DNA of 64,000 bases, from positions 310,001 through 374,000 of the forward strand of contig NZ_JAUSVS010000002.1 of assembly GCF_030814835.1 (NCBI RefSeq). The letters run 5' to 3'. The notes under the pieces were generated by a model. The model was not told the DNA's origin, ran no database searches, and saw only the letters and a list, made by a program, of their open reading frames with translations. A program made the position numbers and the translations under genes. The number at the start of each line of letters is the position of its first letter. Within the stretch, counting starts at the first letter, position 1. Positions 15,974-47,677 of this stretch are shown here, one piece after another. This stretch comes from Caulobacter ginsengisoli. GTDB lineage: Bacteria > Pseudomonadota > Alphaproteobacteria > Caulobacterales > Caulobacteraceae.

Positions 15974-16065
15974 CAGCCCAACCGACGAATCCCTCAGCAA
16001 CGCACTTCACGGCGCCCTTCCGCGCGGCTAGTCTCTCCATTCAAACAGATGTTCGGGAGGCGGAT

Positions 16066-16353
16066 ATGATCGGTGTTGTGGCGACCCTGACGGTTGCGGA
16101 CGGCAAGGGCGCGGACCTGGAAGCGGTGTTCGCCGACCTCGCCGCCAAGGTGAAGGCCAACGAAAGCGGCTGCCTGATGTATCAGCTGACCAAGTCGCGC
16201 ACCGAGCCCAACGTCTACAAGGTGCTGGAGCTCTACGCCTCCGACGAGGCCCTGAAGCACCACGGCTCGACCGACTATTTCAAGGCCGCCGGCCCCGGCA
16301 TCGGCGCCTGCCTGGGCGGCCGTCCCAGCATCGAATACCTCGACGCGGTCTGA
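16066..16353 (+). CDS. Antibiotic biosynthesis monooxygenase (ABM) domain protein
   Basis: A 95-residue ferredoxin-like dimeric alpha-beta protein of the ABM/quinol monooxygenase family. The order VVATLTVADGKGADLEAVF, NESGCLMYQL, YKVLELYASDEALKHH and the final strand is typical. Small ABM proteins oxidise quinols without cofactors or are heme-degrading; none of this can be assigned here. The start follows GGGAGGCGGAT, a good ribosome site. The acyl-CoA dehydrogenase begins 5 nt downstream, so the two are likely cotranscribed. Confidence 0.85.
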   Translation: MIGVVATLTVADGKGADLEAVFADLAAKVKANESGCLMYQLTKSRTEPNVYKVLELYASDEALKHHGSTDYFKAAGPGIGACLGGRPSIEYLDAV

Positions 16354-16358
16354 TCGCC

Positions 16359-17582
16359 ATGGACCTGGCCCTGTCAGCGGACGACCTCGCCTTCCGGGAC
16401 GAGGTCCGCGCCTGGATCGCCGAGAACTTCGACGAGGACACCCGCCGTTGGCTGGCCCAGTCCAAGAACGGCTATCTGGACAAGGCCGGCCAGGTCAGCT
16501 GGCAGAAGAAGCTGGCCGCCAAGGGCTGGGCCGCGCCGGACTGGCCGGTCGAGTGGGGCGGGGCGGGGTTCACCGCCTCGCAGCGCTACATCTTCACCGC
16601 CGAGATGGGCCTGGCCGGCACGCCGCGGCCCAGCCCCATGGGGCTGAACATGGTGGCCCCGGTCATCCTGGCCTTCGGGACCGAGGAGCAGAAGCGCCAG
16701 CATCTGCCGCCGATCCTGTCGTCCGACATCTGGTGGTGCCAGGGCTACAGCGAGCCGGGCTCTGGCTCGGACCTCGCCTCCTTGCAGATGAAGGCCGTCC
16801 GCGACGGCGATGACTACGTCCTCAACGGCTCCAAGATTTGGACCACCCAGGCGCAATGGGCCGACTGGATGTTCTGCCTGGTCCGCACCTCCACCGAGGG
16901 CAAGCCCCAGAGCGGCATCTCGTTCGTGCTGCTGCGCATGGATACGCCCGGGGTGACGGTGAAGTCGCTGCCGACCCTGGACGGGCCGGTCGATGGCCAG
17001 CAGGAGATCAACCAGGTCTTCTTCGAGGATGTCCGGGTGCCCGTCTCCAACCGCATCGGCGAGGAGAACAAGGGCTGGACCTACGCCAAATACCTGCTGG
17101 AATTCGAGCGCGGCAACGCCTTCGCCCCCAGCCTGAAAAGCGTGCTGAAAAAGGTCCGCCGTATCGCCTCGGTCGAGCTGGACGGCAGCGGCGAGGCGAT
17201 GATCAGCGATCCGGCCTTCCGTCGCAAGCTGGCGGCGCTGGAGATCGAAGTCGCCGCCCTGGACGCCACCGAACTGCGCATCTTCTCGGCCATGAGCGGC
17301 GGCGAGCCGGTCGGGCCGGCCTCCTCGATGCTGAAATGCGCGGGGTCGGAAGTGCAGCAGGCGATCACCGAACTGACCCTCGAGGCGGTCGGCGTCTACG
17401 GCCAGCCCTTCGTGCAGGACGGCTGGGCCCATCTGCGCGGCGACAGCAACGAGCCGCTGCCGGGGCCTGATTACGCCGCCCCGGCCGCGCCCACCTATTT
17501 CAACTACCGCAAGGCCTCGATCTATGCCGGGTCCAACGAGATCCAGCGTAACATCATGGCCAAGCTGGTCCTGGGGCTCTGA
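16359..17582 (+). CDS. Acyl-CoA dehydrogenase family protein (PimC-like)
   Basis: A 407-residue FAD flavoenzyme introducing a 2,3 double bond in an acyl-CoA. The central FAD/substrate motif GYSEPGSGSDLASLQ (about 130-144), the strand WTTQAQWADW, and the C-terminal IYAGSNEIQRNIMAK match the large subunit of pimeloyl-CoA dehydrogenase and steroid-type acyl-CoA dehydrogenases. That group normally works with a smaller partner subunit, which is not next to it here. Likely cotranscribed with the ABM gene upstream and the MFS transporter downstream. Substrate chain is unknown. Confidence 0.9.
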   Translation: MDLALSADDLAFRDEVRAWIAENFDEDTRRWLAQSKNGYLDKAGQVSWQKKLAAKGWAAPDWPVEWGGAGFTASQRYIFTAEMGLAGTPRPSPMGLNMVAPVILAFGTEEQKRQHLPPILSSDIWWCQGYSEPGSGSDLASLQMKAVRDGDDYVLNGSKIWTTQAQWADWMFCLVRTSTEGKPQSGISFVLLRMDTPGVTVKSLPTLDGPVDGQQEINQVFFEDVRVPVSNRIGEENKGWTYAKYLLEFERGNAFAPSLKSVLKKVRRIASVELDGSGEAMISDPAFRRKLAALEIEVAALDATELRIFSAMSGGEPVGPASSMLKCAGSEVQQAITELTLEAVGVYGQPFVQDGWAHLRGDSNEPLPGPDYAAPAAPTYFNYRKASIYAGSNEIQRNIMAKLVLGL

Positions 17583-17653
17583 CGGCCGGCTGGCTGCCAG
17601 ACACGGCGCCTGAGGGCCGCAAGATTGCGGCCCTGCTACTGACGACGCGGGGG

Positions 17654-18817
17654 GTGCGGGCCTTCGCCGACGGTTTCGTCGCCCTTCTGCTGCCGGTCTA
17701 TCTCACGGCCCTGGGCTGCAACGCCGTGCAGATCGGCCTACTGGCCAGCCTGACCCTGGCCGGTTCGGCGGCGGTGACCCTCAGCGTCGGTTTCCTGGCC
17801 CATCGCATCGTGCCACGCCTGCTGCTGCTTGGCGCCTCGCTGGCCATGGCGTTGACGGGCCTGGCCTTCGCCGGGTTCTCCGATTTCTGGCCGCTGGCGG
17901 TGGTCGCCTTCGTCGGCACGCTCAATCCCTCGGGCGGCGATGTCAGCCTGTTCCTGCCTCTGGAACACAGCCTGCTGGCCCACGCCGTCGCCGACCGCGA
18001 CCGCACGGCGCTCTTCTCCAACTACAGCCTGATTGCCGGCCTGGTCGGCGCGCTGGGGGCCCTGGCCGCCGGTCTGCCGGATCTGCTGGGCGCTCTCCTG
18101 CCCAGGCTGGAGGCCATCCGCGGCATGTTCGGCCTCTACGCCCTGGCCGGCCTGGTCGTCTTCTTCCTCTATCGCCGCCTGCCCGTCGCCCAGGCCGACA
18201 CCGCAATCGCCCACACCCCGCTCGGCCCGTCACGCAAGCGGGTGATACAGCTGGCGGCGGTCTTCAGCCTGGACAGCTTCGGTGGCGGCTTCCTGGTCCA
18301 GAGCCTGCTGGCGCTGTGGCTGTTCGACCGTTTCGGCCTGAGCCTGGCCCAGGGCGCCCTGTTCTTCTTCTGGGCGGGCCTGCTGGCGGCGGCCTCGTTC
18401 CTGGTCGCCCCGCGCCTGGCCAAGCGGTTCGGGCTGATCAACACCATGGTCTTCACCCACATCCCGGCCAGCCTCTGCCTGATCGCGGCGGCCTTCACCC
18501 CCAGTCTCTGGGCGGTGCTGGCCCTGCTGCTGGTCCGCGCCTTCCTGTCCTCGATGGATGTGCCCGCCCGCACCTCCTACGTCATGGCCGTGGTCACCCC
18601 GCCCGAACGCGCGGCCGCGGCCAGCTTCACGGCGGTGCCGCGCAGCCTGACCTCGGCCGCGGGGCCGACGATCGCCGGGTGGATGCTGTCGCTGGGGGGA
18701 TTTGCCTGGCCGCTGCTGGTCGGCGGCGGGCTGAAGATCGCCTACGATCTTCTGATGCTGTTCATGTTCCGGAATGTGAGGGCGCCTGAGGAGGCCGCCA
18801 AAAGTGTGTTGGACTAG
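17654..18817 (+). CDS. MFS transporter
   Basis: A 387-residue major facilitator family permease with twelve hydrophobic segments in two halves, with the central basic loop near residue 175-195. The substrate is unknown. The GTG at 17654 is the first standard start, but the frame is open further upstream and reads LLTTRGVRAFADGF, a start typical for this MFS group, so the real start is probably earlier, perhaps a rare CTG at 17579 that would overlap the acyl-CoA dehydrogenase stop (CTGA). Confidence 0.85.
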   Translation: MRAFADGFVALLLPVYLTALGCNAVQIGLLASLTLAGSAAVTLSVGFLAHRIVPRLLLLGASLAMALTGLAFAGFSDFWPLAVVAFVGTLNPSGGDVSLFLPLEHSLLAHAVADRDRTALFSNYSLIAGLVGALGALAAGLPDLLGALLPRLEAIRGMFGLYALAGLVVFFLYRRLPVAQADTAIAHTPLGPSRKRVIQLAAVFSLDSFGGGFLVQSLLALWLFDRFGLSLAQGALFFFWAGLLAAASFLVAPRLAKRFGLINTMVFTHIPASLCLIAAAFTPSLWAVLALLLVRAFLSSMDVPARTSYVMAVVTPPERAAAASFTAVPRSLTSAAGPTIAGWMLSLGGFAWPLLVGGGLKIAYDLLMLFMFRNVRAPEEAAKSVLD

Positions 18818-18899
18818 CGCGCGATTTTGTCGTTGCCTTCTCTACCAAAGGTCGAGAGTAGACGCGTTGCGGGAACACCATGACGTCGGGAGGAATACG

Positions 18900-19691
18900 A
18901 TGAAGTTTTCCATACGGCGGTCCTTCGTTGCGGCCGCCTCGGCGGTGCGGGGAGGGTGGCCCTCGACGCTCATTCCGATCATAGCTGGATTGGCTTTCGG
19001 TGTTCTCTCTTACTATCTAAGCGTATTTATGGAATTCAAAGTGCTGAGAAATAGTACAGCTCTCAGTATAGCTCAAATTTCTACCTATTTGTGTTCATTT
19101 CTAATAGTATTTTTTTCTTTCTGCACCCTCGGATTTCGTAGAGTTTTGGCGCTAAGCGGGTCCGAAAAGAAGGAAATAGGTATTACGATAAATTCAATAG
19201 TCGTCGGAGTAGTATATGCTTCGATGGGTCCGGGTCTCGCTTCAATTCTGTCCGTATTGTCCCCACTGCTCGGCGAAGCAGTCGGCGATGGACAATGGTG
19301 GTCGCCGCATAGATGGTTGCTGCCAGTTATTCTTATCTGGCCTGTCGTCTTTAGTTCTGCTTTTGCGTTCGCGATACCGATTTCACTTCATCAGAGAAGC
19401 GGCTTGGCCCAGAGCTTCTTGAGCGCCTTCACGGTAGGCAAGGGAAATAGAGTGAGAATATTTATTCTCTTCCTAATTGTGGCCACGCTGGGAGCTGCCT
19501 TAGCCACGATTTTTGGAACGCTTGCCGAAATTGTGTCGCCCAGGCGGTATTCTGTTTCGTATGCTGTCGTGTTGCAATTTGGCGTAGTGGCAGCAACCGC
19601 GATTGCGGCGATAATTTCTGTAATAGCTTACTTGGAGCTCAAGTCTGCCGAGGGCGGCGACGCAAACGGAGTCGCGAAAGCGTTCTCCTAG
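18900..19691 (+). CDS. Polytopic membrane protein of the AT-rich island
   Basis: A 263-residue integral membrane protein with about six hydrophobic segments (roughly 22-45, 55-85, 95-125, 140-165, 180-215, 220-245) and a hydrophilic tail ending in SAEGGDANG. The start ATG 18900 is preceded by GGGAGG six bases away, better than the upstream frame. The C-terminal layout (last segment followed by YLELKS) resembles membrane domains such as that of glycerophosphodiester phosphodiesterases, but I cannot assign a family. Base composition is far more AT-rich than the surrounding genes, which suggests horizontal transfer. It is the first of three genes on the same strand. Confidence 0.72.
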   Translation: MKFSIRRSFVAAASAVRGGWPSTLIPIIAGLAFGVLSYYLSVFMEFKVLRNSTALSIAQISTYLCSFLIVFFSFCTLGFRRVLALSGSEKKEIGITINSIVVGVVYASMGPGLASILSVLSPLLGEAVGDGQWWSPHRWLLPVILIWPVVFSSAFAFAIPISLHQRSGLAQSFLSAFTVGKGNRVRIFILFLIVATLGAALATIFGTLAEIVSPRRYSVSYAVVLQFGVVAATAIAAIISVIAYLELKSAEGGDANGVAKAFS

Positions 19692-19747
19692 GAGTTGTTT
19701 CTATATAGGAATCGTGGATAAATGGCGTCCTTCTGGGAGGGCGACAA

Positions 19748-20461
19748 ATGCCTGTTGGGACTAACGGCACCAGTATCTATCGACCCGCGACCGCTCCTCC
19801 AGGAACGGTGTGCACTGGCAGCGGGATCGGGGTGACGGTGCGCGACGCACAAGGGCACGTTCTCTTTGTCATGGGATTGAACGACGGAAAAATATACTTT
19901 GGAGATCAATACTCAGATCCTCATCTGCCTACCGTTCAAGCCGCAACAATCGTAAATGGGCAGATGGTCGTGCCGCCTTCTGGGCCGACAATTGTCAATA
20001 TCGATGGCACAGATTATATCTTACTTTCCTATGAGATGGCGAACGGCCAAAGCCAAGTGATAAATATTCGCCTAAGTTTGTATGAAGATATAAGGGACGG
20101 GGGATTGGACGGGGCCATAGCAGTGGGTCTCATTGCAGCATCTTTTCTGGATGCGAGCACGGGGCTTATGCCTGGCATGCGCGACGCCGATCACGATGGA
20201 GATATTGATCTGAATGACGCCCAGGCAGTTCTTAGGGACATGTTTCTGGATGAGGCTGCCCGTCAACTTGACCAGGGTGACAGCGTCGATTCCCTAGCGT
20301 TTCAGGTTCTTGCCAACTCAGTGCCCGACGCCATCGGGCTGTTGGCAATCTTTGCGGATACTACGACCGGCGACCAGAACGAGCCAAGTGGTGGCGGAGG
20401 CGGTTCCGGTGGTGAAGGCGGTGGCGGCGGCGGTGATGGCGACTCGGGCTGGATCTTCTAG
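19748..20461 (+). CDS. EF-hand and poly-glycine protein of the AT-rich island
   Basis: A 237-residue protein I do not recognise. It lacks a classical signal peptide. The N-terminal half reads as beta-strands (GIGVTVRDAQGHVLFVMGL; GKIYFGD). Near residue 139-150 is a perfect EF-hand/dockerin-type loop DADHDGDIDLND with acidic residues at positions 1, 3, 5, 7, 9 and 12. The C-terminus is a poly-Gly/Ser/Asp tract that ends GDSGWIF, an acidic-hydrophobic tail like that of type I secreted proteins. Start ATG 19748 has GGGAGGG seven bases upstream. AT-rich like its neighbours. Secreted, calcium-dependent protein or precursor is the working guess. Confidence 0.7.
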   Translation: MPVGTNGTSIYRPATAPPGTVCTGSGIGVTVRDAQGHVLFVMGLNDGKIYFGDQYSDPHLPTVQAATIVNGQMVVPPSGPTIVNIDGTDYILLSYEMANGQSQVINIRLSLYEDIRDGGLDGAIAVGLIAASFLDASTGLMPGMRDADHDGDIDLNDAQAVLRDMFLDEAARQLDQGDSVDSLAFQVLANSVPDAIGLLAIFADTTTGDQNEPSGGGGGSGGEGGGGGGDGDSGWIF

Positions 20462-20476
20462 AATCTGCAGTGCGTT

Positions 20477-21103
20477 ATGCACCTAGTAGGCAATCGCGTG
20501 ACCGAGTCGCGAGAATACAAATTCTCGGTAGAGCGCGATATCATCGTGCCAGCGATTATGGTTTTTCCATTTCTCGTTGCCGTAGTTTGCATTTCTGCTG
20601 GCCTATATTTGTCGATTTTTTTCCTGCTGGGACCGCACCCTAGGCTTAACTTTGTTGTACCTGCAACCGCGATCTTTTTCCCATTTGCTGAAGAGATCGT
20701 AAGGGTCGCTATAATTCGAAGTCCGGCGATCCGATCAGAGGTCGGGGCTGCTACTATGGCCATTTGCATATGGGCGGCTGAGACTGCAGCTCGACTTTCC
20801 ACAAATAGAGAAAGCCCTAATGAAATCAAATTATTACTTCTATACGCGTCCTTAGGTCCTTTCGCGGTCCACTATGTCTCTAGTGTGCTTAATTTCAGAG
20901 CGAAAGGTCGAAGGTTTACCTGGGGTATCGCAGCTTTTCTGACTGGGTTCGTTCTGCACGCGACGCAATACGCTGTCACGAAAATGTTTGCGGACATCGA
21001 TTTGTATGTCTGGACCGTACCAACGACCGCCATGCTTCTCGTCGCGGCCGTAAACGCACCACAGATTCGCCGGTGGCGGCAAAAGGGTAGGCTTGCGGGA
21101 TAA
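20477..21103 (+). CDS. PrsW-like intramembrane protease candidate
   Basis: A 208-residue protein with about six membrane segments. It carries the pattern of PrsW/CPBP-type glutamate proteases: FPFAEEIVRV (about residues 72-81; the double-glutamate motif EExxR), a second membrane glutamate in WAAETAAR (about residue 101), a histidine in GPFAVHYV (about 134) and one in FVLHATQY (about 158). PrsW in Bacillus cleaves an anti-sigma factor inside the membrane; here the natural partners are the two preceding genes. It starts 15 nt after the previous stop, with a weak ribosome site, consistent with coupled expression. Family assignment by motif only. Confidence 0.6.
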   Translation: MHLVGNRVTESREYKFSVERDIIVPAIMVFPFLVAVVCISAGLYLSIFFLLGPHPRLNFVVPATAIFFPFAEEIVRVAIIRSPAIRSEVGAATMAICIWAAETAARLSTNRESPNEIKLLLLYASLGPFAVHYVSSVLNFRAKGRRFTWGIAAFLTGFVLHATQYAVTKMFADIDLYVWTVPTTAMLLVAAVNAPQIRRWRQKGRLAG

Positions 21104-21145
21104 TTGAAAAACGGGACGCCAGGACAGCGCCCCGTCTCTCAGAGA

Positions 21146-22105
21146 CTAGCGGGCCGTCAGATACGCCGACGACACCCAGCCGCGGTTGCCGTTCTCGTCA
21201 TCGACTTCCATCCAGACGCCGTTGCGGCCGCCGGTCGGATAGACGATGGCGCCGGTGCGCAGGGTCAGCACCACCGGTGAGGAGGGCGAGGGCTGCTGGC
21301 GCATCGGGATGGCCTGGGTGGTGACCTGGGCCGAAGGCGCCGCCGCGGACGTCTGAGCGCCGGTCGGGGCCTGGGTCTGCAGGTAGTTGATGAGATCGAT
21401 GAAGGCGTTGAAATAGGCGGCCGTGATGACCTTGCCGATCTCGGTGTTGCTATAGCCGCCGCCGGCAAGGGCGCCGCCGCCGGTGGTGCCCAGCAGGGCC
21501 CCGCCCGCGCCGAAGCCGATGTCGGTCTTCTTGGCCACGCCCTCGGCGACATAGAGCTGCTCGGTGGTCCGCGCATCGACCAGGGTGATGATCACCTGGG
21601 CTTCCGAGGACTTGGTCTGCAGCTTGCCGGCCAGGGCGCCGAAGCCGCCGGGCAGGAAGCTGCCGGCCACCGCGCCGATGTTGCTGCCGCCGGAGTTGGA
21701 GTTGGAATTGGCGATGTCGGGGACCAGGAAGAAGTCCGCCGCCTTGACCTGGCCACGGCCGATATTGCTGCCCTGCTGCAGGTCGCCGGAGGCCGCGAGG
21801 TCGCGCTCCTGGTCGCGCATGGCCAGGCCGCCGTTGCGGTCGACCATCCGCAGGCACCCGGAGCGGGCGGCGAACAGCTTGAGCAGGGCCTCGGGGCTGG
21901 AGAGGCCCAGCTGGGTCCACCAGCGGTTCTCCGGCTCCTGCACCGCCGCCGTGCCCAACGGCGCGGCGCATTTGGGCAGCTGGGGCGTGGCGGCGTTCTT
22001 CGGCGGCTTCTTGTCCATGCCGAATTGAGCGTAGGCGGGCGTGGTGACGGCCAGCCCGCTCAGGATCAGGCTGACAGTAGCGACGGCGGTGGTGATTTTG
22101 CGCAT
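21146..22105 (-). CDS. Exported CsgG-like / SH3-domain protein
   Basis: A 319-residue protein with a signal peptide (cleavage after AYA about residue 25) and a good ribosome site (GGAGGGG two bases upstream) that fixes the start at 22105. The middle (about 90-215) resembles CsgG-type curli/holdfast secretion-lipoprotein folds: LKLFAARSGCLRMVDR, then AEAQVIITLVDARTTEQLYVAEGVAKK. The C-terminus (about 255-319) is a bacterial SH3 domain (MRQQPSPSSPVVLTLRTGAIVY...GNRGWVSSAYL). Together they suggest a periplasmic or outer-membrane-associated assembly protein. There is no lipobox cysteine. Its function here is unknown. Confidence 0.78.
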   Translation of the reverse strand: MRKITTAVATVSLILSGLAVTTPAYAQFGMDKKPPKNAATPQLPKCAAPLGTAAVQEPENRWWTQLGLSSPEALLKLFAARSGCLRMVDRNGGLAMRDQERDLAASGDLQQGSNIGRGQVKAADFFLVPDIANSNSNSGGSNIGAVAGSFLPGGFGALAGKLQTKSSEAQVIITLVDARTTEQLYVAEGVAKKTDIGFGAGGALLGTTGGGALAGGGYSNTEIGKVITAAYFNAFIDLINYLQTQAPTGAQTSAAAPSAQVTTQAIPMRQQPSPSSPVVLTLRTGAIVYPTGGRNGVWMEVDDENGNRGWVSSAYLTAR

Positions 22106-22275
22106 GGCCCCTCCGGGGAATTGGCGTGCTTCAACTGGAAAACAGCCCGCCCGGGCTCCCGACTTCCACGAGCGGGTGGCGGACCCATACACCCGGGCCG
22201 CCGAACACTGTGCGGGAAGACTAGCCGCACTCTGCCCCGCCGTCTCCCCAGTTTTGGGGGGCCAGTTTGAGGGGC

Positions 22276-24126
22276 TCAGCCGGTGGCGACCAGCTCGGCC
22301 ATCTCCCGCGGATGGGAGATATAGAGCATCAGGCCGGCGCGCGGCATCTTGACGAAGCTGGCGTTCGGCAGGTCGCCGAACACCCGCTCCACACCCTCCA
22401 GGGCCAGGGTGGCGCCCTCGACCACCAGCCAGCGCTCGCCGCCGATCCCCTCGGGCACCCGCCAGCCGCGGGCGTAGGCGGCGTGCTCGTCGGCGAAGCC
22501 GCGGCAGGATCTGGCGCTCATCGCCTGGGCCTCGCGCACCATGTAGTCGAGGATGCCGGGCTGCTCGAGCGCCTCGCGGTCGGCGAGATTGTCCTTGAGG
22601 GAATTGCGCAGGGTCGTGCGCACCAGGTCGCTGCGGGTCTGGCGGCGCAGCATCTCCGAGAACACCCCGATCAGGTCCGGATTGGCCAGGAAGGCCCGGA
22701 AGATGGAGTTCATCATCCCGCCCGCGGCCAGGCGCTCATGGGCCGGCCACTTGCCGTTGACGACGATGCCGCGGATGACGCGCAGGGGATAGCGGGCGGC
22801 GAAGGTCAGGCCGGCGGCGACGGCGCCGTCGCGGGCCAGCATGATGACCCGGGGAATCTTCAGCGCATCCAGGATGGCGGCCATGTCGGCGGCGGCGGTC
22901 TCCAGGATGTCGCCGATGGCCGGGTCGGTCAGGCCAAAGCCCGGCCGCTGCGGCACGATGGGCCGGAAGCCCTTGGCCTGCAGGGCGGCGACGAAGGGGC
23001 GGGTCAGGTTGCGCCCGGTGGCCTGGCCGTGCAGCACGAACAGCGCCTGGCCACTGCGTGGCCCATAGTCGGTGAAGGCCACCCGCCGCTCGCCGGGCGC
23101 GACCAGCACTCTCAGGCGGCCGCCCGGATCGTGGTCGGACACCACCGATTCGGCGTTGGAGATCATCGCCGCCAGCGAACTGGTCTCGACCGACAGGCGG
23201 ACCAGGTCCTTGGCCTTGTTGACCCCGGTCTTGGCGAACACCGCCTTGAGTTGGCCGCGCACGGTGGCTTCCTTGACCCCCAGGTCGGCGGCGACCTCGC
23301 GGGCGGTCAGGCCCCGGGCGAAGGCCGCCGCGGCCCGCGACTCGGCCGGGGTGGCGCCGAACGAGGCGGCCAGGGTGGCTTCGATGTCGGGGGAGGGCGG
23401 ATGGTCGCCGCAGATCAGGTCCATCATCTTGCGGACCAGTTCGGGCGAGCGCTTGGCCCCGGCCTTGCGCATGGCCTTCTTCAGGGCCTCGCGGGCGGTC
23501 TCGCGGCCGACGCCGATCTGGGCGGCGGCCGCCTCCAGGTTGGGCGAATCGAGCAGGGCCTCGGCCAGGCGCGCCTCCAGCGGCGTCAGGCCATAGGCCT
23601 CGGCCGCCCGCTGGGTCAGCTCGCTGGAGCGCGAGGGGGAGAAGCCCAGCAGCACCACGCGCCGGCCGCCGTCCCGCAGCATGGTGCGGCAGGCCTCGGG
23701 CATCGGCCAGCCCGCCGTCATCTCGGCCAGGCCCGCGCAGCAGGCGATGGCGTCGCCGTCCCGCGCCTCGACCAGACCCGAGACCTGGCCGTTCTTCAGC
23801 GCCAACCGGATCAGGCGGCGGAAGGCGGGCGTATCGCTTGGCACGCCGAACCAGTCGCGAAAACCCCTGTCGGTATAGAGGGTCTGGCCGTCGGCCGAGA
23901 CCACGGCGCTAACCAGGCCCGAGGCCGGGGCATGGGTGGCGAAGGCGGCGGCGGCCGGCGAGGCGACGATCTCGCTGAGCACCACGGCCAGCCGTTCCGG
24001 CTCGTGCAGGGCGGTGGTTTCCAGGGAGGGCCAGGCGTCGAACAGCGCCTGGGTCGGCCAGCCTTCGGCCGTCCGATACGCCAGGGTTTCCGGCCAGCTT
24101 CGTTCGGCCGTCTTGAGACTCGGCAT
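22276..24126 (-). CDS. LuxR-type HTH protein with C-terminal alpha/beta-hydrolase-like domain
   Basis: A 616-residue protein with an N-terminal PAS-like region (about 1-170), two consecutive LuxR-like helix-turn-helix segments (LTPLEARLAEALLDSPNLEAAA; then RGLTAREVAADLGVKEATVRGQ), and a C-terminal alpha/beta-hydrolase domain (about 335-616). The hydrolase is degenerate: the nucleophile elbow reads LARDGAVA with an aspartate, and the position of the catalytic histidine has AGLMLYI. So the domain may bind a ligand rather than hydrolyse it. The start is ATG 24126 (a GTG one codon earlier is equally possible). It probably regulates a nearby or distant target gene. Confidence 0.8.
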   Translation of the reverse strand: MPSLKTAERSWPETLAYRTAEGWPTQALFDAWPSLETTALHEPERLAVVLSEIVASPAAAAFATHAPASGLVSAVVSADGQTLYTDRGFRDWFGVPSDTPAFRRLIRLALKNGQVSGLVEARDGDAIACCAGLAEMTAGWPMPEACRTMLRDGGRRVVLLGFSPSRSSELTQRAAEAYGLTPLEARLAEALLDSPNLEAAAAQIGVGRETAREALKKAMRKAGAKRSPELVRKMMDLICGDHPPSPDIEATLAASFGATPAESRAAAAFARGLTAREVAADLGVKEATVRGQLKAVFAKTGVNKAKDLVRLSVETSSLAAMISNAESVVSDHDPGGRLRVLVAPGERRVAFTDYGPRSGQALFVLHGQATGRNLTRPFVAALQAKGFRPIVPQRPGFGLTDPAIGDILETAAADMAAILDALKIPRVIMLARDGAVAAGLTFAARYPLRVIRGIVVNGKWPAHERLAAGGMMNSIFRAFLANPDLIGVFSEMLRRQTRSDLVRTTLRNSLKDNLADREALEQPGILDYMVREAQAMSARSCRGFADEHAAYARGWRVPEGIGGERWLVVEGATLALEGVERVFGDLPNASFVKMPRAGLMLYISHPREMAELVATG

Positions 24127-34875: not shown

Positions 34876-35817
34876 ATGGCGCCGCAACGCATCCTGGTGA
34901 TCAAGCTTTCCGCCCTGGGCGACTTCGTCCAGGCCAGCGGCCCCATGAAGGCCATCCACGCGGCGCATCCGGACGCCCACATCACCCTGCTGACCACCGG
35001 CCCCTACGTGGCCATGGGCCAGGCCACCGGCTGGTTCGACGAGGTCTGGAGCGACGGCCGCCCTGACTGGAGCGACCTGCCGGCCGTCTGGCGGCTGCTG
35101 AGCCGCCTGCGCGGGGCCCGGTTCGACCGGGTCTACGACCTGCAGACCCAGAGCCGCACCATCCGCTATTTCCAGCTGCTCTGGCCGCGACGCCCCGACT
35201 GGTCCGGCAACGCCCCGGGCGCGAAGTTCCGCTACGCCGGGCCCGAGCGCGACCGGCTGCACATCCAGGACAGCCAGCGCAACCAGCTGGCTGTCGCCGG
35301 TATCCCGCAGACGCCGCCGCCGGACGTCTCCTGGCTGAAGGGGGAGGGCGGTTTCGATCTGCAGAGCCCCTACGCCCTGCTGGTCCCCGGCGGCGCCCCG
35401 CACCGGCCCGCCAAGCGCTGGCCGGCCGAACGCTATGGCGAACTGGCGGCGAGGCTGGCGAGGGAGGGGATTACGCCCGTCGTCCTTGGCCACGGCCCCG
35501 ACGAGGCCGGGCTGGCGGAGATCATCCGGGCCTCCGAGCCGAGCGCCGTGGTCCTGGTCGGCAAGACCAAACTCGGCGACATCGCCGACCTCGCCCGCGC
35601 CGCGGCGCTGGCCGTCGGCAACGACACCGGCCCCATGCACGTCATCGCCGCCGGCGGTTGCCCGTCGTTGGTCCTGTTTTCCGCCGACAGCGACCCGGCG
35701 CTCAGCGCGCCCCGGCCGTCAGGGGAGGGGCGGGTGGAGATATTGCGGGAGATGGATTTGGAGGACTTGGCCGTGGCGCCGGTCTGGTCGGTCGTGGAGA
35801 CGCTCAGAAACCGGTGA
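34876..35817 (+). CDS. Glycosyltransferase family 9 (heptosyltransferase-like)
   Basis: A 313-residue glycosyltransferase of the ADP-heptose:LPS heptosyltransferase family. It starts RILVIKLSALGDFVQASGP, as expected for family 9, with LLTTGPYVAM and the nucleotide-binding C-terminal part VALVP-GGAPHRPAKRWP and VGNDTGPMHVIAAGGCP (read in pieces). It would transfer heptose onto lipid A-core in the cytoplasmic face of the inner membrane. The 3' end overlaps the toxin remnant at 35804-36112 by 14 nt on the opposite strand. Confidence 0.92.
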   Translation: MAPQRILVIKLSALGDFVQASGPMKAIHAAHPDAHITLLTTGPYVAMGQATGWFDEVWSDGRPDWSDLPAVWRLLSRLRGARFDRVYDLQTQSRTIRYFQLLWPRRPDWSGNAPGAKFRYAGPERDRLHIQDSQRNQLAVAGIPQTPPPDVSWLKGEGGFDLQSPYALLVPGGAPHRPAKRWPAERYGELAARLAREGITPVVLGHGPDEAGLAEIIRASEPSAVVLVGKTKLGDIADLARAAALAVGNDTGPMHVIAAGGCPSLVLFSADSDPALSAPRPSGEGRVEILREMDLEDLAVAPVWSVVETLRNR

Positions 35818-36112
35818 AGACGCGGCTGATGCCGCGCCGGATCGCGTCCTCATGCTCCAGCAGCGAGCCGACACGCCGTTAGAGGACCTTGGCTTCCAAT
35901 CCGCCCATATCGGCCAGCGAAAGGATCAAATCCTCATCCCGCACATGCAGGCGAACCTCGATCTCTTCAATCTGTCTTTGGCGATCTCTGACCAATGGCG
36001 CTGCGATGACGACATCGGTCTGGCGCATCAAATGAGAGGAAAGAACGATCAGATAGGGCGCTATAGCCCGGCTCGAAGCGAACGGATTTTCATAGAAATC
36101 GAATTGACGCAC
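35804..36112 (-). pseudogene. ccdB: CcdB-like toxin gene with an in-frame stop codon
   Basis: The open frame begins GTG 36112 (RQFDFYENPFASSRAIAPYL) and matches the CcdB toxin fold up to ILSLADMGGLEAKVL, then meets TAA at 35879-35881. Reading on in the same frame gives RRVGSLLEHEDAIRRGISRVF and TGF, then TGA at 35804-35806, exactly the CcdB C-terminus and length (about 102 codons). The C-terminus of CcdB is needed for gyrase poisoning, so this copy is probably inactive, unless the stop is a sequencing error or read through. It sits one base behind the antitoxin gene. Confidence 0.85.
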
Positions 36113-36113
36113 G

Positions 36114-36389
36114 CTACCAGCGCCGCCACTCGGCGCTGATCAGACCGCGTTCGGCGACACGTTGATTGAACTCCGCAATGGCCTCGGCGTTGTCGCTCGC
36201 CCATTGCTTCGCGCGCTCTTCACCCATTCCCTCTGACAATCTCGAAGGGCTGACGAGGTCGGCATGATGAGCCAGGGCGCGCCTGAGGCCGTCCTCCACC
36301 ACGAGTTCGAGCGGCATGCCAGCCTGTCTGGCAGTCTCCAGCAGGTCCGCGTCGATCTCGATCTTGAGCTCAGCCTTGCCCATACCCAA
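36114..36389 (-). CDS. ccdA: CcdA-like antitoxin
   Basis: A 91-residue antitoxin of the type II CcdA family. The N-terminal KAELKIEIDADLLETARQAG forms the ribbon-helix-helix DNA-binding unit and the C-terminal EAIAEFNQRVAERGLISAEW (pieces: EAIAEFNQRV, ERGLISAEWRRW) is the flexible part that wraps around CcdB. The gene is intact and overlaps neither neighbour: the toxin remnant follows after one base. The protein would autoregulate the pair. It remains after loss of full-length toxin, possibly as a relic or to counter other CcdB toxins. Confidence 0.88.
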   Translation of the reverse strand: MGMGKAELKIEIDADLLETARQAGMPLELVVEDGLRRALAHHADLVSPSRLSEGMGEERAKQWASDNAEAIAEFNQRVAERGLISAEWRRW

Positions 36390-36391
36390 GC

Positions 36392-36850
36392 CTAACTCAA
36401 TTTCGCGATCCCGTCGCCCATCCAGTGGCTGAACCCCATCCCTTCCGGGGCTTGCGCGAACCCCATCGCCTCCCAGAAAGGCGGCGCCGCGGCCGTAGCC
36501 TGCGCATTGGAAACCAGCAGGTCGGCGGCCTGAAGCCCCTGCTGCATCATCGCCGCGGCCAGCATCCGTCCCACGCCCAGTCGCCGTGCTGACGGCGCCA
36601 CGTAGAGCCGGCGCATGCGCATGGCCGGCCGGTCCAGGCCAGGCTGCGGCGTCACCCCGCCGAGGCCGACCAACTCGCCCTCGGCGAAGGCGGCGAAGAG
36701 GGCGCCGGGGTCGCGGAAGGGGTTCTCAGTCTCCACCCACTGCGCCGCCAGGGCGCTCATGTTGCGCACGCCTTCGGCTTCGGCCTGGGCGCGCAGGGCC
36801 GGGAAGCCTTCGGGCAGGGCGCCCTCGACCCGGACGATCTGCACGCTCAT
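36392..36850 (-). CDS. GNAT-family N-acetyltransferase
   Basis: A 152-residue acetyl-CoA-dependent acetyltransferase. The strand MRMRRLYVAPSARRLGVGRML with the R-x-x-G-x-G/A acetyl-CoA loop (RRLGVGRML) is the GNAT core. The start at 36850 overlaps the PhyH gene stop (ATGA), so translation is coupled. The acceptor substrate is unknown. Confidence 0.85.
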   Translation of the reverse strand: MSVQIVRVEGALPEGFPALRAQAEAEGVRNMSALAAQWVETENPFRDPGALFAAFAEGELVGLGGVTPQPGLDRPAMRMRRLYVAPSARRLGVGRMLAAAMMQQGLQAADLLVSNAQATAAAPPFWEAMGFAQAPEGMGFSHWMGDGIAKLS

Positions 36851-47206: not shown

Positions 47207-47344
47207 TGTCCGACGCGAACTGACGGTTTCTGTTGAGGGGAAGGTAGCCTGTTGGCGGCCCGGCGCAAAGCCGGACTCTTGCCGGGCGACAGGCTTTCCA
47301 CAACGGCGGGAAGCCTGAACAAATCCGCAAATGACGAAGGTGGA

Positions 47345-47665
47345 GGGATTCTGTTGCCAGGCTCCCTCCGGGCCCCGCCTGAAGGTGCTAAACCCGCAGG
47401 GCTTTAGGTCGAACTCACCGGAACCGCATTACGCGGCGACAGCGAACTCTTCAGCGAAGTTATCGTTCGCATTTAGTTTAATGACCCGAAGCGGTGGGTC
47501 AGGCCGAGAGAAAGCAAACACCTTTAGACGTCTGTCGATGCTGATCGGCCCCATGCTCTCCGGCGATACCCGGAAAAGGTGATGGTGGAGCCGCCGGGAA
47601 TCGCACCCGGGTCCAGTCCGCTTATTACGCGCGCGTTTATCTCCATAGTCCGGGCAAGCCCGAAC
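47345..47665 (-). ncRNA. ssrA: Two-piece (permuted) tmRNA
   Basis: The permuted tmRNA gene, read on the minus strand. The acceptor piece (about 47665 down to 47583) ends in the T-arm sequence GGGTGCGATTCCC, acceptor strand CGGCTCCA and CCA (47585-47583). After a roughly 30-nt spacer the coding piece begins GGGGCCG at 47552, which pairs with the acceptor strand over 7 bp and includes the G3-U70 wobble needed for alanyl-tRNA synthetase. The tag codons GCG AAC GAT AAC... run 47470-47432 and encode ANDNFAEEFAVAA, stop TAA at 47431-47429. The 3' end of the coding piece is approximate. It rescues stalled ribosomes; the tag is recognised by ClpXP with SspB. Confidence 0.95.
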
Positions 47666-47671
47666 GGGTCT

Positions 47672-47677
47672 AATATA
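47672..47677 (-). promoter_or_regulatory. ssrA: -10 element of the tmRNA promoter
   Basis: TATATT on the minus strand lies 7 nt before the likely transcription start at about 47665. No clear -35 is seen, as is common for alphaproteobacterial promoters. Confidence 0.45.

What the first reader, a model, noticed from the sequence alone, without database searches (positions are those of the whole stretch)
18900..21103. AT-rich three-gene island with a PrsW-like protease and an EF-hand/poly-Gly protein
Seen: three same-strand genes clearly more AT-rich than the high-GC DNA on both sides, encoding a six-helix membrane protein, a soluble protein with one perfect EF-hand-type loop and a poly-Gly tail, and a polytopic protein with EExxR, a second membrane Glu and two His in the order of PrsW proteases. 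Known: PrsW and CPBP proteins cut or process membrane substrates or protect against peptides. Inference: a transferred module in which the protease processes or senses one of the two partners, perhaps for secretion or signalling. No member matches a family I know well.
Basis: partly seen in the sequence, partly recalled or inferred. Interest (0 to 1): 0.78.

Follow-up and report, generated by a model that had tools for sequence, protein, structure and literature searches.

The report
Foreign three-gene island of orphan genes
A short block of three genes with foreign base composition sits in a high-GC bacterial chromosome; two of them have no detectable relatives in anything searched, one of those carries a residue pattern like that of a membrane-embedded protease, and the block is a plausible but unproven module rather than a known system.

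Summary
The observation largely holds. Three same-strand genes (P1 18900-19691, P2 19748-20461, P3 20477-21103) form the only long AT-rich stretch of the window: GC 0.49-0.55 and GC3 about 0.5, against GC3 of 0.91-0.93 in four neighbouring genes. In three relatives the flanking dehydrogenase and CsgG-like genes are adjacent, so the indel is about 17583-21105 and also includes the GC-rich MFS gene. P1 is a remote relative of UPF0259/DUF975/GPDPase_memb-type membrane proteins. P2 and P3 are orphans: 1 of 199 family genomes each (self), and no credible match in 385 class genomes, plasmids, phages, or pattern scans of viral and genome contigs. P3 has EExxR, Glu, His, His in PrsW order (72 of 20,000 local shuffles), but fails the PrsW and CPBP profiles and shows only two clear hydropathy peaks, so membership is not shown and even a polytopic fold is not certain. 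Most likely this is an acquired operon in which P3, a very divergent intramembrane protease, acts on a partner; that mechanism is inference. Interest modest.

The parts
17583..21105 (.). indel absent from three relatives with the same flanks; holds the MFS gene plus the AT-rich trio
   Evidence: G176, G212 and G209 have the dehydrogenase followed by the CsgG-like gene with about 80-170 bases between; edges approximate, read by eye
17654..18817 (+). MFS transporter, GC-rich, codon use near that of the host; inside the indel but probably of a different origin from the trio
   Evidence: PF07690 2.4e-23; GC3 0.91; 1 of 61 genus genomes at E<=1e-40, self; best plasmid matches 57-59% identical in the 8 of 74 records listed, Burkholderia and one Sinorhizobium; matches phrog_2034, unknown function
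18900..19691 (+). P1, six-peak membrane protein, remote UPF0259/DUF975/GPDPase_memb-like
   Evidence: 26.1 bits to an HMM of 38 frames from genomes of the same bacterial family, best of 2000 local shuffles 9.8; members or a relative of that set hit PF06790/PF10110/PF06161; GGGAGG-like ribosome-binding sequence before the ATG
19748..20461 (+). P2, orphan protein with one EF-hand-type loop and a Gly-rich tail
   Evidence: Pfam only two sub-threshold hits, E 0.1 and 0.12; none at E<=1 in NCBIfam, PADLOC, PHROGs; 1 of 199 family genomes, self
20183..20218 (+). EF-hand/dockerin-type calcium loop DADHDGDIDLND in P2
20390..20458 (+). Gly-rich C-terminal tail of P2 ending in GWIF
20477..21103 (+). P3, orphan protein, probably of the membrane, with residues in PrsW/CPBP motif order
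   Evidence: EExxR codons from 20690, Glu102 20780, His132 20870, His161 20957
21106..21155 (.). stretch resembling the hairpin that two relatives carry between dehydrogenase and CsgG-like genes; marks the right edge of the indel
   Evidence: by eye

Best explanation
An acquired three-gene transcription unit of foreign base composition. Shown: foreign codon use, three real ORFs in tandem, absence at the same place in relatives. Inferred: P3 is a very divergent glutamic intramembrane protease of the broad PrsW/CPBP kind (EExxR, Glu, His, His in four consecutive predicted helices), P1 is a UPF0259/YciC-like membrane partner, and P2 is the calcium-binding product that the pair handles; P3 would clip a hydrophobic stretch of P2 or of P1 to mature, release or destroy it, and calcium binding by the EF-hand-type loop would stabilise P2 once it is outside the low-calcium cytoplasm.
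For: Composition and codon use; ORFs beyond chance; gaps of 56 and 15 bases on one strand; adjacent flanks in relatives; motif order and spacing of P3 in 72 of 20,000 local shuffles, and in 8 of 140 multi-peak frames, all 8 being the PrsW frames of loci fetched; weak profile signals for P3 above most shuffles; P1 family signal. PrsW and CPBP proteins are described as processing toxins, anti-sigma factors and surface proteins (passages of PMC3482391, PMC9263693, PMC11980579).
Against: P3 fails PF13367 and PF02517. Against profiles built here it scores 4.0 and 2.8 bits, with some tens of 2000 shuffles scoring higher and the best shuffles at 9.1 and 10.3; 2 of 150 and 4 of 150 shuffles reach it in hhalign, and the aligned part is only the EE region. 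The motif spacing range was set after P3 was seen, and misses several true PrsW loci. P3 has only two hydropathy peaks above 1.5 and the Glu102 surroundings average 0.25, poor for a membrane helix. The AlphaFold models are unusable (pLDDT 49.7 and 36.0). P2 shows no obvious signal peptide by eye and only two weak hydrophobic stretches, so it is an awkward substrate. No second copy shows the genes travelling together.
Confidence: 0.3

Rival explanations
1. Unrelated acquired cargo: fast-evolving orphan genes brought in together, with no shared function, and P3 not a protease; the motif is coincidence.
For: No relatives of P2 or P3 in anything searched; profile and fold searches negative; P3 hydropathy weak.
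Against: Motif order is rare by chance; genes are tightly spaced on one strand; P1-P3 match no PHROGs family, so no phage origin is evident.
Confidence: 0.32
2. Bacteriocin- or toxin-like system: P2 is a secreted or contact-delivered product and P1 and/or P3 are membrane immunity or processing proteins.
For: An orphan product beside two putative membrane proteins; PrsW peptidases are described with polymorphic toxins and CPBP with bacteriocin processing (passages); P2 has two hydrophobic stretches.
Against: P2 hits no described family above cut-off, shows no obvious leader by eye, and no exporter lies in the trio.
Confidence: 0.2
3. Stress or signalling relay: P3 acts as a site-1 protease on membrane protein P1, with P2 as the calcium-responsive input or output, as PrsW acts on RsiW.
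For: PrsW precedent (passages); P1 is a membrane protein.
Against: None of the four indel proteins matches a sigma or anti-sigma family; P1 resembles UPF0259-type proteins.
Confidence: 0.1

Closest known systems
PrsW-type intramembrane peptidase (PF13367)
   Same: EExx[KR], then Glu, His, His in four consecutive predicted helices, with roughly similar spacing
   Different: no profile match; by eye against the L083 frame it lacks the DGxxYG stretch, the Glu-Asn pair and the HxxxD context, and has 30 residues between first and second Glu sites against about 39
CPBP/Rce1 glutamic intramembrane protease (PF02517)
   Same: EE motif followed by helices with His
   Different: no PF02517 match at P3, although the same genome has 8 others; EExxR rather than EExxxR (form as given in passages of PMC6588880)
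UPF0259 / DUF975 / GPDPase_memb membrane proteins
   Same: about 120 C-terminal residues of P1 align with the family set
   Different: P1 itself matches none of these Pfam models at E<=1
Sorting pairs of CPBP enzyme plus tagged target (MrtX with MYXO-CTERM, MrtJ with JDVT-CTERM; passages of PMC11980579)
   Same: a small neighbourhood of a putative membrane protease and a putative target with a distinct C-terminus
   Different: the P2 tail has no Cys signature, no hydrophobic helix and no basic cluster (by eye)

Membership tests
PrsW (PF13367) | match to the family profile | tested here: not met
   no match at P3 by hmmscan at E<=1 or in the own genome at E<=0.001; profile built here 4.0 bits against 9.1 for the best shuffle
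PrsW (PF13367) | EExxK/R, second Glu and two His in order | tested here: met
   spacing range chosen after seeing P3
PrsW (PF13367) | those residues lie in transmembrane helices | tested here: inconclusive
   helices in a low-confidence model, but only two hydropathy peaks
PrsW (PF13367) | motif residues conserved among homologues | not testable with these tools
   no homologue found
CPBP/Rce1 (PF02517) | match to the family profile | tested here: not met
   profile built here 2.8 bits against 10.3 for the best shuffle
CPBP/Rce1 (PF02517) | Rce1-like fold | tested here: inconclusive
   model pLDDT 49.7; 0 of 11 Foldseek matches at E<=0.001
UPF0259/DUF975/GPDPase_memb-like membrane proteins | significant similarity to members | tested here: met
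   26.1 bits against 9.8 for the best of 2000 local shuffles; set named through
UPF0259/DUF975/GPDPase_memb-like membrane proteins | P1 itself passes the Pfam cut-off | tested here: not met
EF-hand/dockerin calcium-binding proteins | 12-residue DxDxDG loop | tested here: met
EF-hand/dockerin calcium-binding proteins | paired loops or Pfam match | tested here: not met
   one loop only; no EF-hand or dockerin model at E<=1
Known anti-phage defence systems (PADLOC) | any model match | tested here: not met
   0 families at E<=1 for P1, P2, P3 and MFS

The most novel reading that the evidence does not exclude
A previously undescribed three-part system in which a family-less glutamic intramembrane protease and a UPF0259-like membrane partner mature or release a calcium-binding protein with a Gly-rich GWIF tail, the tail acting as a new kind of recognition signal.
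Probability: 0.1. Interest if true: 0.6.

Novelty: new variant of a known kind. Interest (0 to 1): 0.32.

Why it matters
If P3 is a protease, it would extend the PrsW/CPBP superfamily beyond what the profiles used here detect, with a candidate partner gene ending 15 bases upstream, so activity and substrate could be tested together. If it is not, the locus is one more strain-specific island of orphan genes.

Tried and rejected
Class-wide hits to P2 (2 of 385 genomes besides self, E 0.005-0.01) were read and judged chance: they fall in an elongation factor P-like gene and in an alternate frame of an ArdC-like gene (gene names by eye). Class-wide hits to P3 (3 of 385 besides self, E 0.006-0.009) fall in an oxidoreductase-like protein, a copper-ATPase-like protein and a frame with stops (names by eye). 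P1's two sub-threshold Pfam hits (EMC6_arch E 0.032, DUF6220 E 0.078) were not followed. A 14-base inverted repeat near the two edges of the indel (17578-17591 and 21148-21161) was set aside because on the right it lies in CsgG-gene codons that are nearly the same in relatives without the insert. The sorting-tag reading of the Gly tail was rejected for lack of a helix and a basic end (by eye). No Rfam match in 16000-23000. Promoter-like sites 3 against 1.4 expected and terminator-like 6 against 3.5 expected, not clearly above shuffles. Solved-structure sequence searches gave nothing useful: P2's best hits were to low-complexity stretches (E 0.011 at best), P3 none at E<=10, P1 none better than 0.46. 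Distant DNA search of the trio in plasmids gave only 30-45-base scraps at E 0.6. Literature: 0 papers of the held library combine intramembrane, EF-hand, glycine-rich and PrsW; the other searches gave background only, and papers were seen as listings or passages, none in full.

Scripts that misfired: one search looked for locus files under wrong names and was redone; one search built a profile with minus-strand loci read on the wrong strand and was replaced (only its correctly read L083 row is used, for a comparison by eye). Of 15 PrsW loci (L083-L096 and L049), L088 and L093 were left out of the profile because their frames hold stops; 13 were offered and the final profile holds 14 segments from 12 loci, L089 and L094 being overlapping copies of one place; the CPBP profile holds 32 segments from 30 loci.

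Full report
What is there. The window is high-GC (0.687), and 18.8-21.1 kb is its one long AT-rich stretch: the other 500-base windows below 0.60 GC are two short spots, near 35.8 kb and near 47.2-47.4 kb. It holds three ORFs in tandem on the + strand: P1 (263 aa from the ATG at 18900), P2 (237 aa) and P3 (208 aa). Ribosome-binding-like purine runs precede P1 and P2; P3 starts 15 bases after the P2 stop with no clear one, as if translationally coupled (inference). The ORFs are longer than 500 dinucleotide shuffles gave and codon use is foreign to the host (GC3 about 0.5 against 0.91-0.93 in four neighbours). I take them as real genes of foreign origin.

Where it sits. Names of the flanking genes other than MFS and CsgG are by eye. 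A search with the CsgG-like protein matched 46 of 61 genus genomes, some only in its SH3 part. I fetched ten of these places. Four hold the orthologous acyl-CoA dehydrogenase (75-78% identity): in three (G176, G212, G209) it is followed by the CsgG-like gene with about 80 to 170 bases between, in the fourth (G222) by the LuxR/hydrolase gene, with CsgG further on; the other six have CsgG in another setting. None of the ten shows the MFS or the trio by tblastn at 1e-5. So the indel runs from about 17583, just after the dehydrogenase stop, to about 21105, where sequence like the relatives' intergenic hairpin begins. It includes the MFS gene, which has host-like composition, was found in 1 of 61 genus genomes at E<=1e-40 (self), and has relatives of 57-59% identity on the 8 plasmids listed of 74 matched. 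MFS and trio differ so much in composition that two arrivals at one spot are likelier than one (inference). ARAGORN finds no tRNA in the window, only a tmRNA at 47 kb, and I saw no target duplication at the edges.

P1. No Pfam match above cut-off. In 199 family genomes its only match besides itself was part of a membrane protein cut by a contig end (E 1.6e-4). An HMM of 38 frames related to that protein scores P1 at 26.1 bits, against 9.8 for the best of 2000 locally shuffled copies. That protein and two members of the set match UPF0259, GPDPase_memb and DUF975 in Pfam, one of them above the UPF0259 cut-off. P1 is therefore a remote member of that superfamily, whose function is not settled (recalled). 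It has no match in phages, plasmids or a viral pattern scan.

P2. A perhaps beta-rich front half, helices, one EF-hand-type loop and a Gly-rich tail ending in GWIF (the model has pLDDT 36.0 and gives only a hint). Hydropathy shows two weak peaks (1.67 and 1.54). No relatives: 1 of 199 family genomes (self), 3 of 385 class genomes at E<=0.01, self plus two chance hits, no match in plasmids or phages, none in pattern scans of genome and viral contigs, which reach close relatives only.

P3. With a spacing range set after seeing P3, the pattern occurs in 27, 72 and 147 of 20,000 shuffles (whole, 15-residue and 30-residue blocks), and in 8 of 140 frames with four or more hydropathy peaks in the DNA held, all 8 being the PrsW frames of loci; that DNA is no neutral sample, since it was fetched partly by PrsW and CPBP searches, and the pattern misses about half of the 15 PrsW loci. 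P3 itself is not among the 140, because it shows only two peaks. Neither PF13367 nor PF02517 finds P3. The profiles built here give 4.0 and 2.8 bits, bettered by some tens of 2000 shuffles, and hhalign scores are reached by 2 of 150 and 4 of 150 shuffles, the aligned part being only the EE region. Relatives: 1 of 199 family genomes (self), 4 of 385 class genomes at E<=0.01, self plus three chance hits, none in plasmids, phages, viral or genome contigs. Foldseek on the weak model gave 0 of 11 matches at E<=0.001, which says nothing either way.

Reading. The sound statement is: an acquired, foreign-composition, operon-like block with one remote family member (P1) and two orphans, one of which carries the residue order of PrsW/CPBP enzymes. 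Published precedents for such enzymes are anti-sigma factor cleavage, release of polymorphic toxins, and C-terminal sorting (passages seen of PMC3482391, PMC9263693 and PMC11980579; passages of PMC6588880, for the EExxR/QExxR alignment in the superfamily). Which of these applies, if any, cannot be decided from one copy. Of the finding's own refutation tests, base composition does differ; motif conservation and co-occurrence could not be tested because no homologue was found, which leaves the travelling-module claim without support.

Noticed in passing
window 47338-47675 (-): tmRNA gene flagged tmRNA* by ARAGORN, the mark of the permuted two-piece form (recalled), with tag ANDNFAEEFAVAA; in keeping with a Caulobacter-like host (recalled).
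   Followed up: no
window 21146-22192 (-): CsgG-like gene: the 14 closest relatives align from residue 24-30, so the true start is probably the ATG of MRKITTAV rather than the upstream GTG. Its neighbours vary among congeners.
   Followed up: partly
G003:C326 (L057) and G025:C27 (L056): Several matches to UPF0259/DUF975-like membrane proteins lie close together: five within about 4 kb in G003 and three in G025.
   Followed up: no
own genome: Eight PF02517 (CPBP) matches in this one genome, the most of the 58 searched.
   Followed up: no
window 35801-36400: Short dip in GC to 0.586-0.596 outside the island.
   Followed up: no
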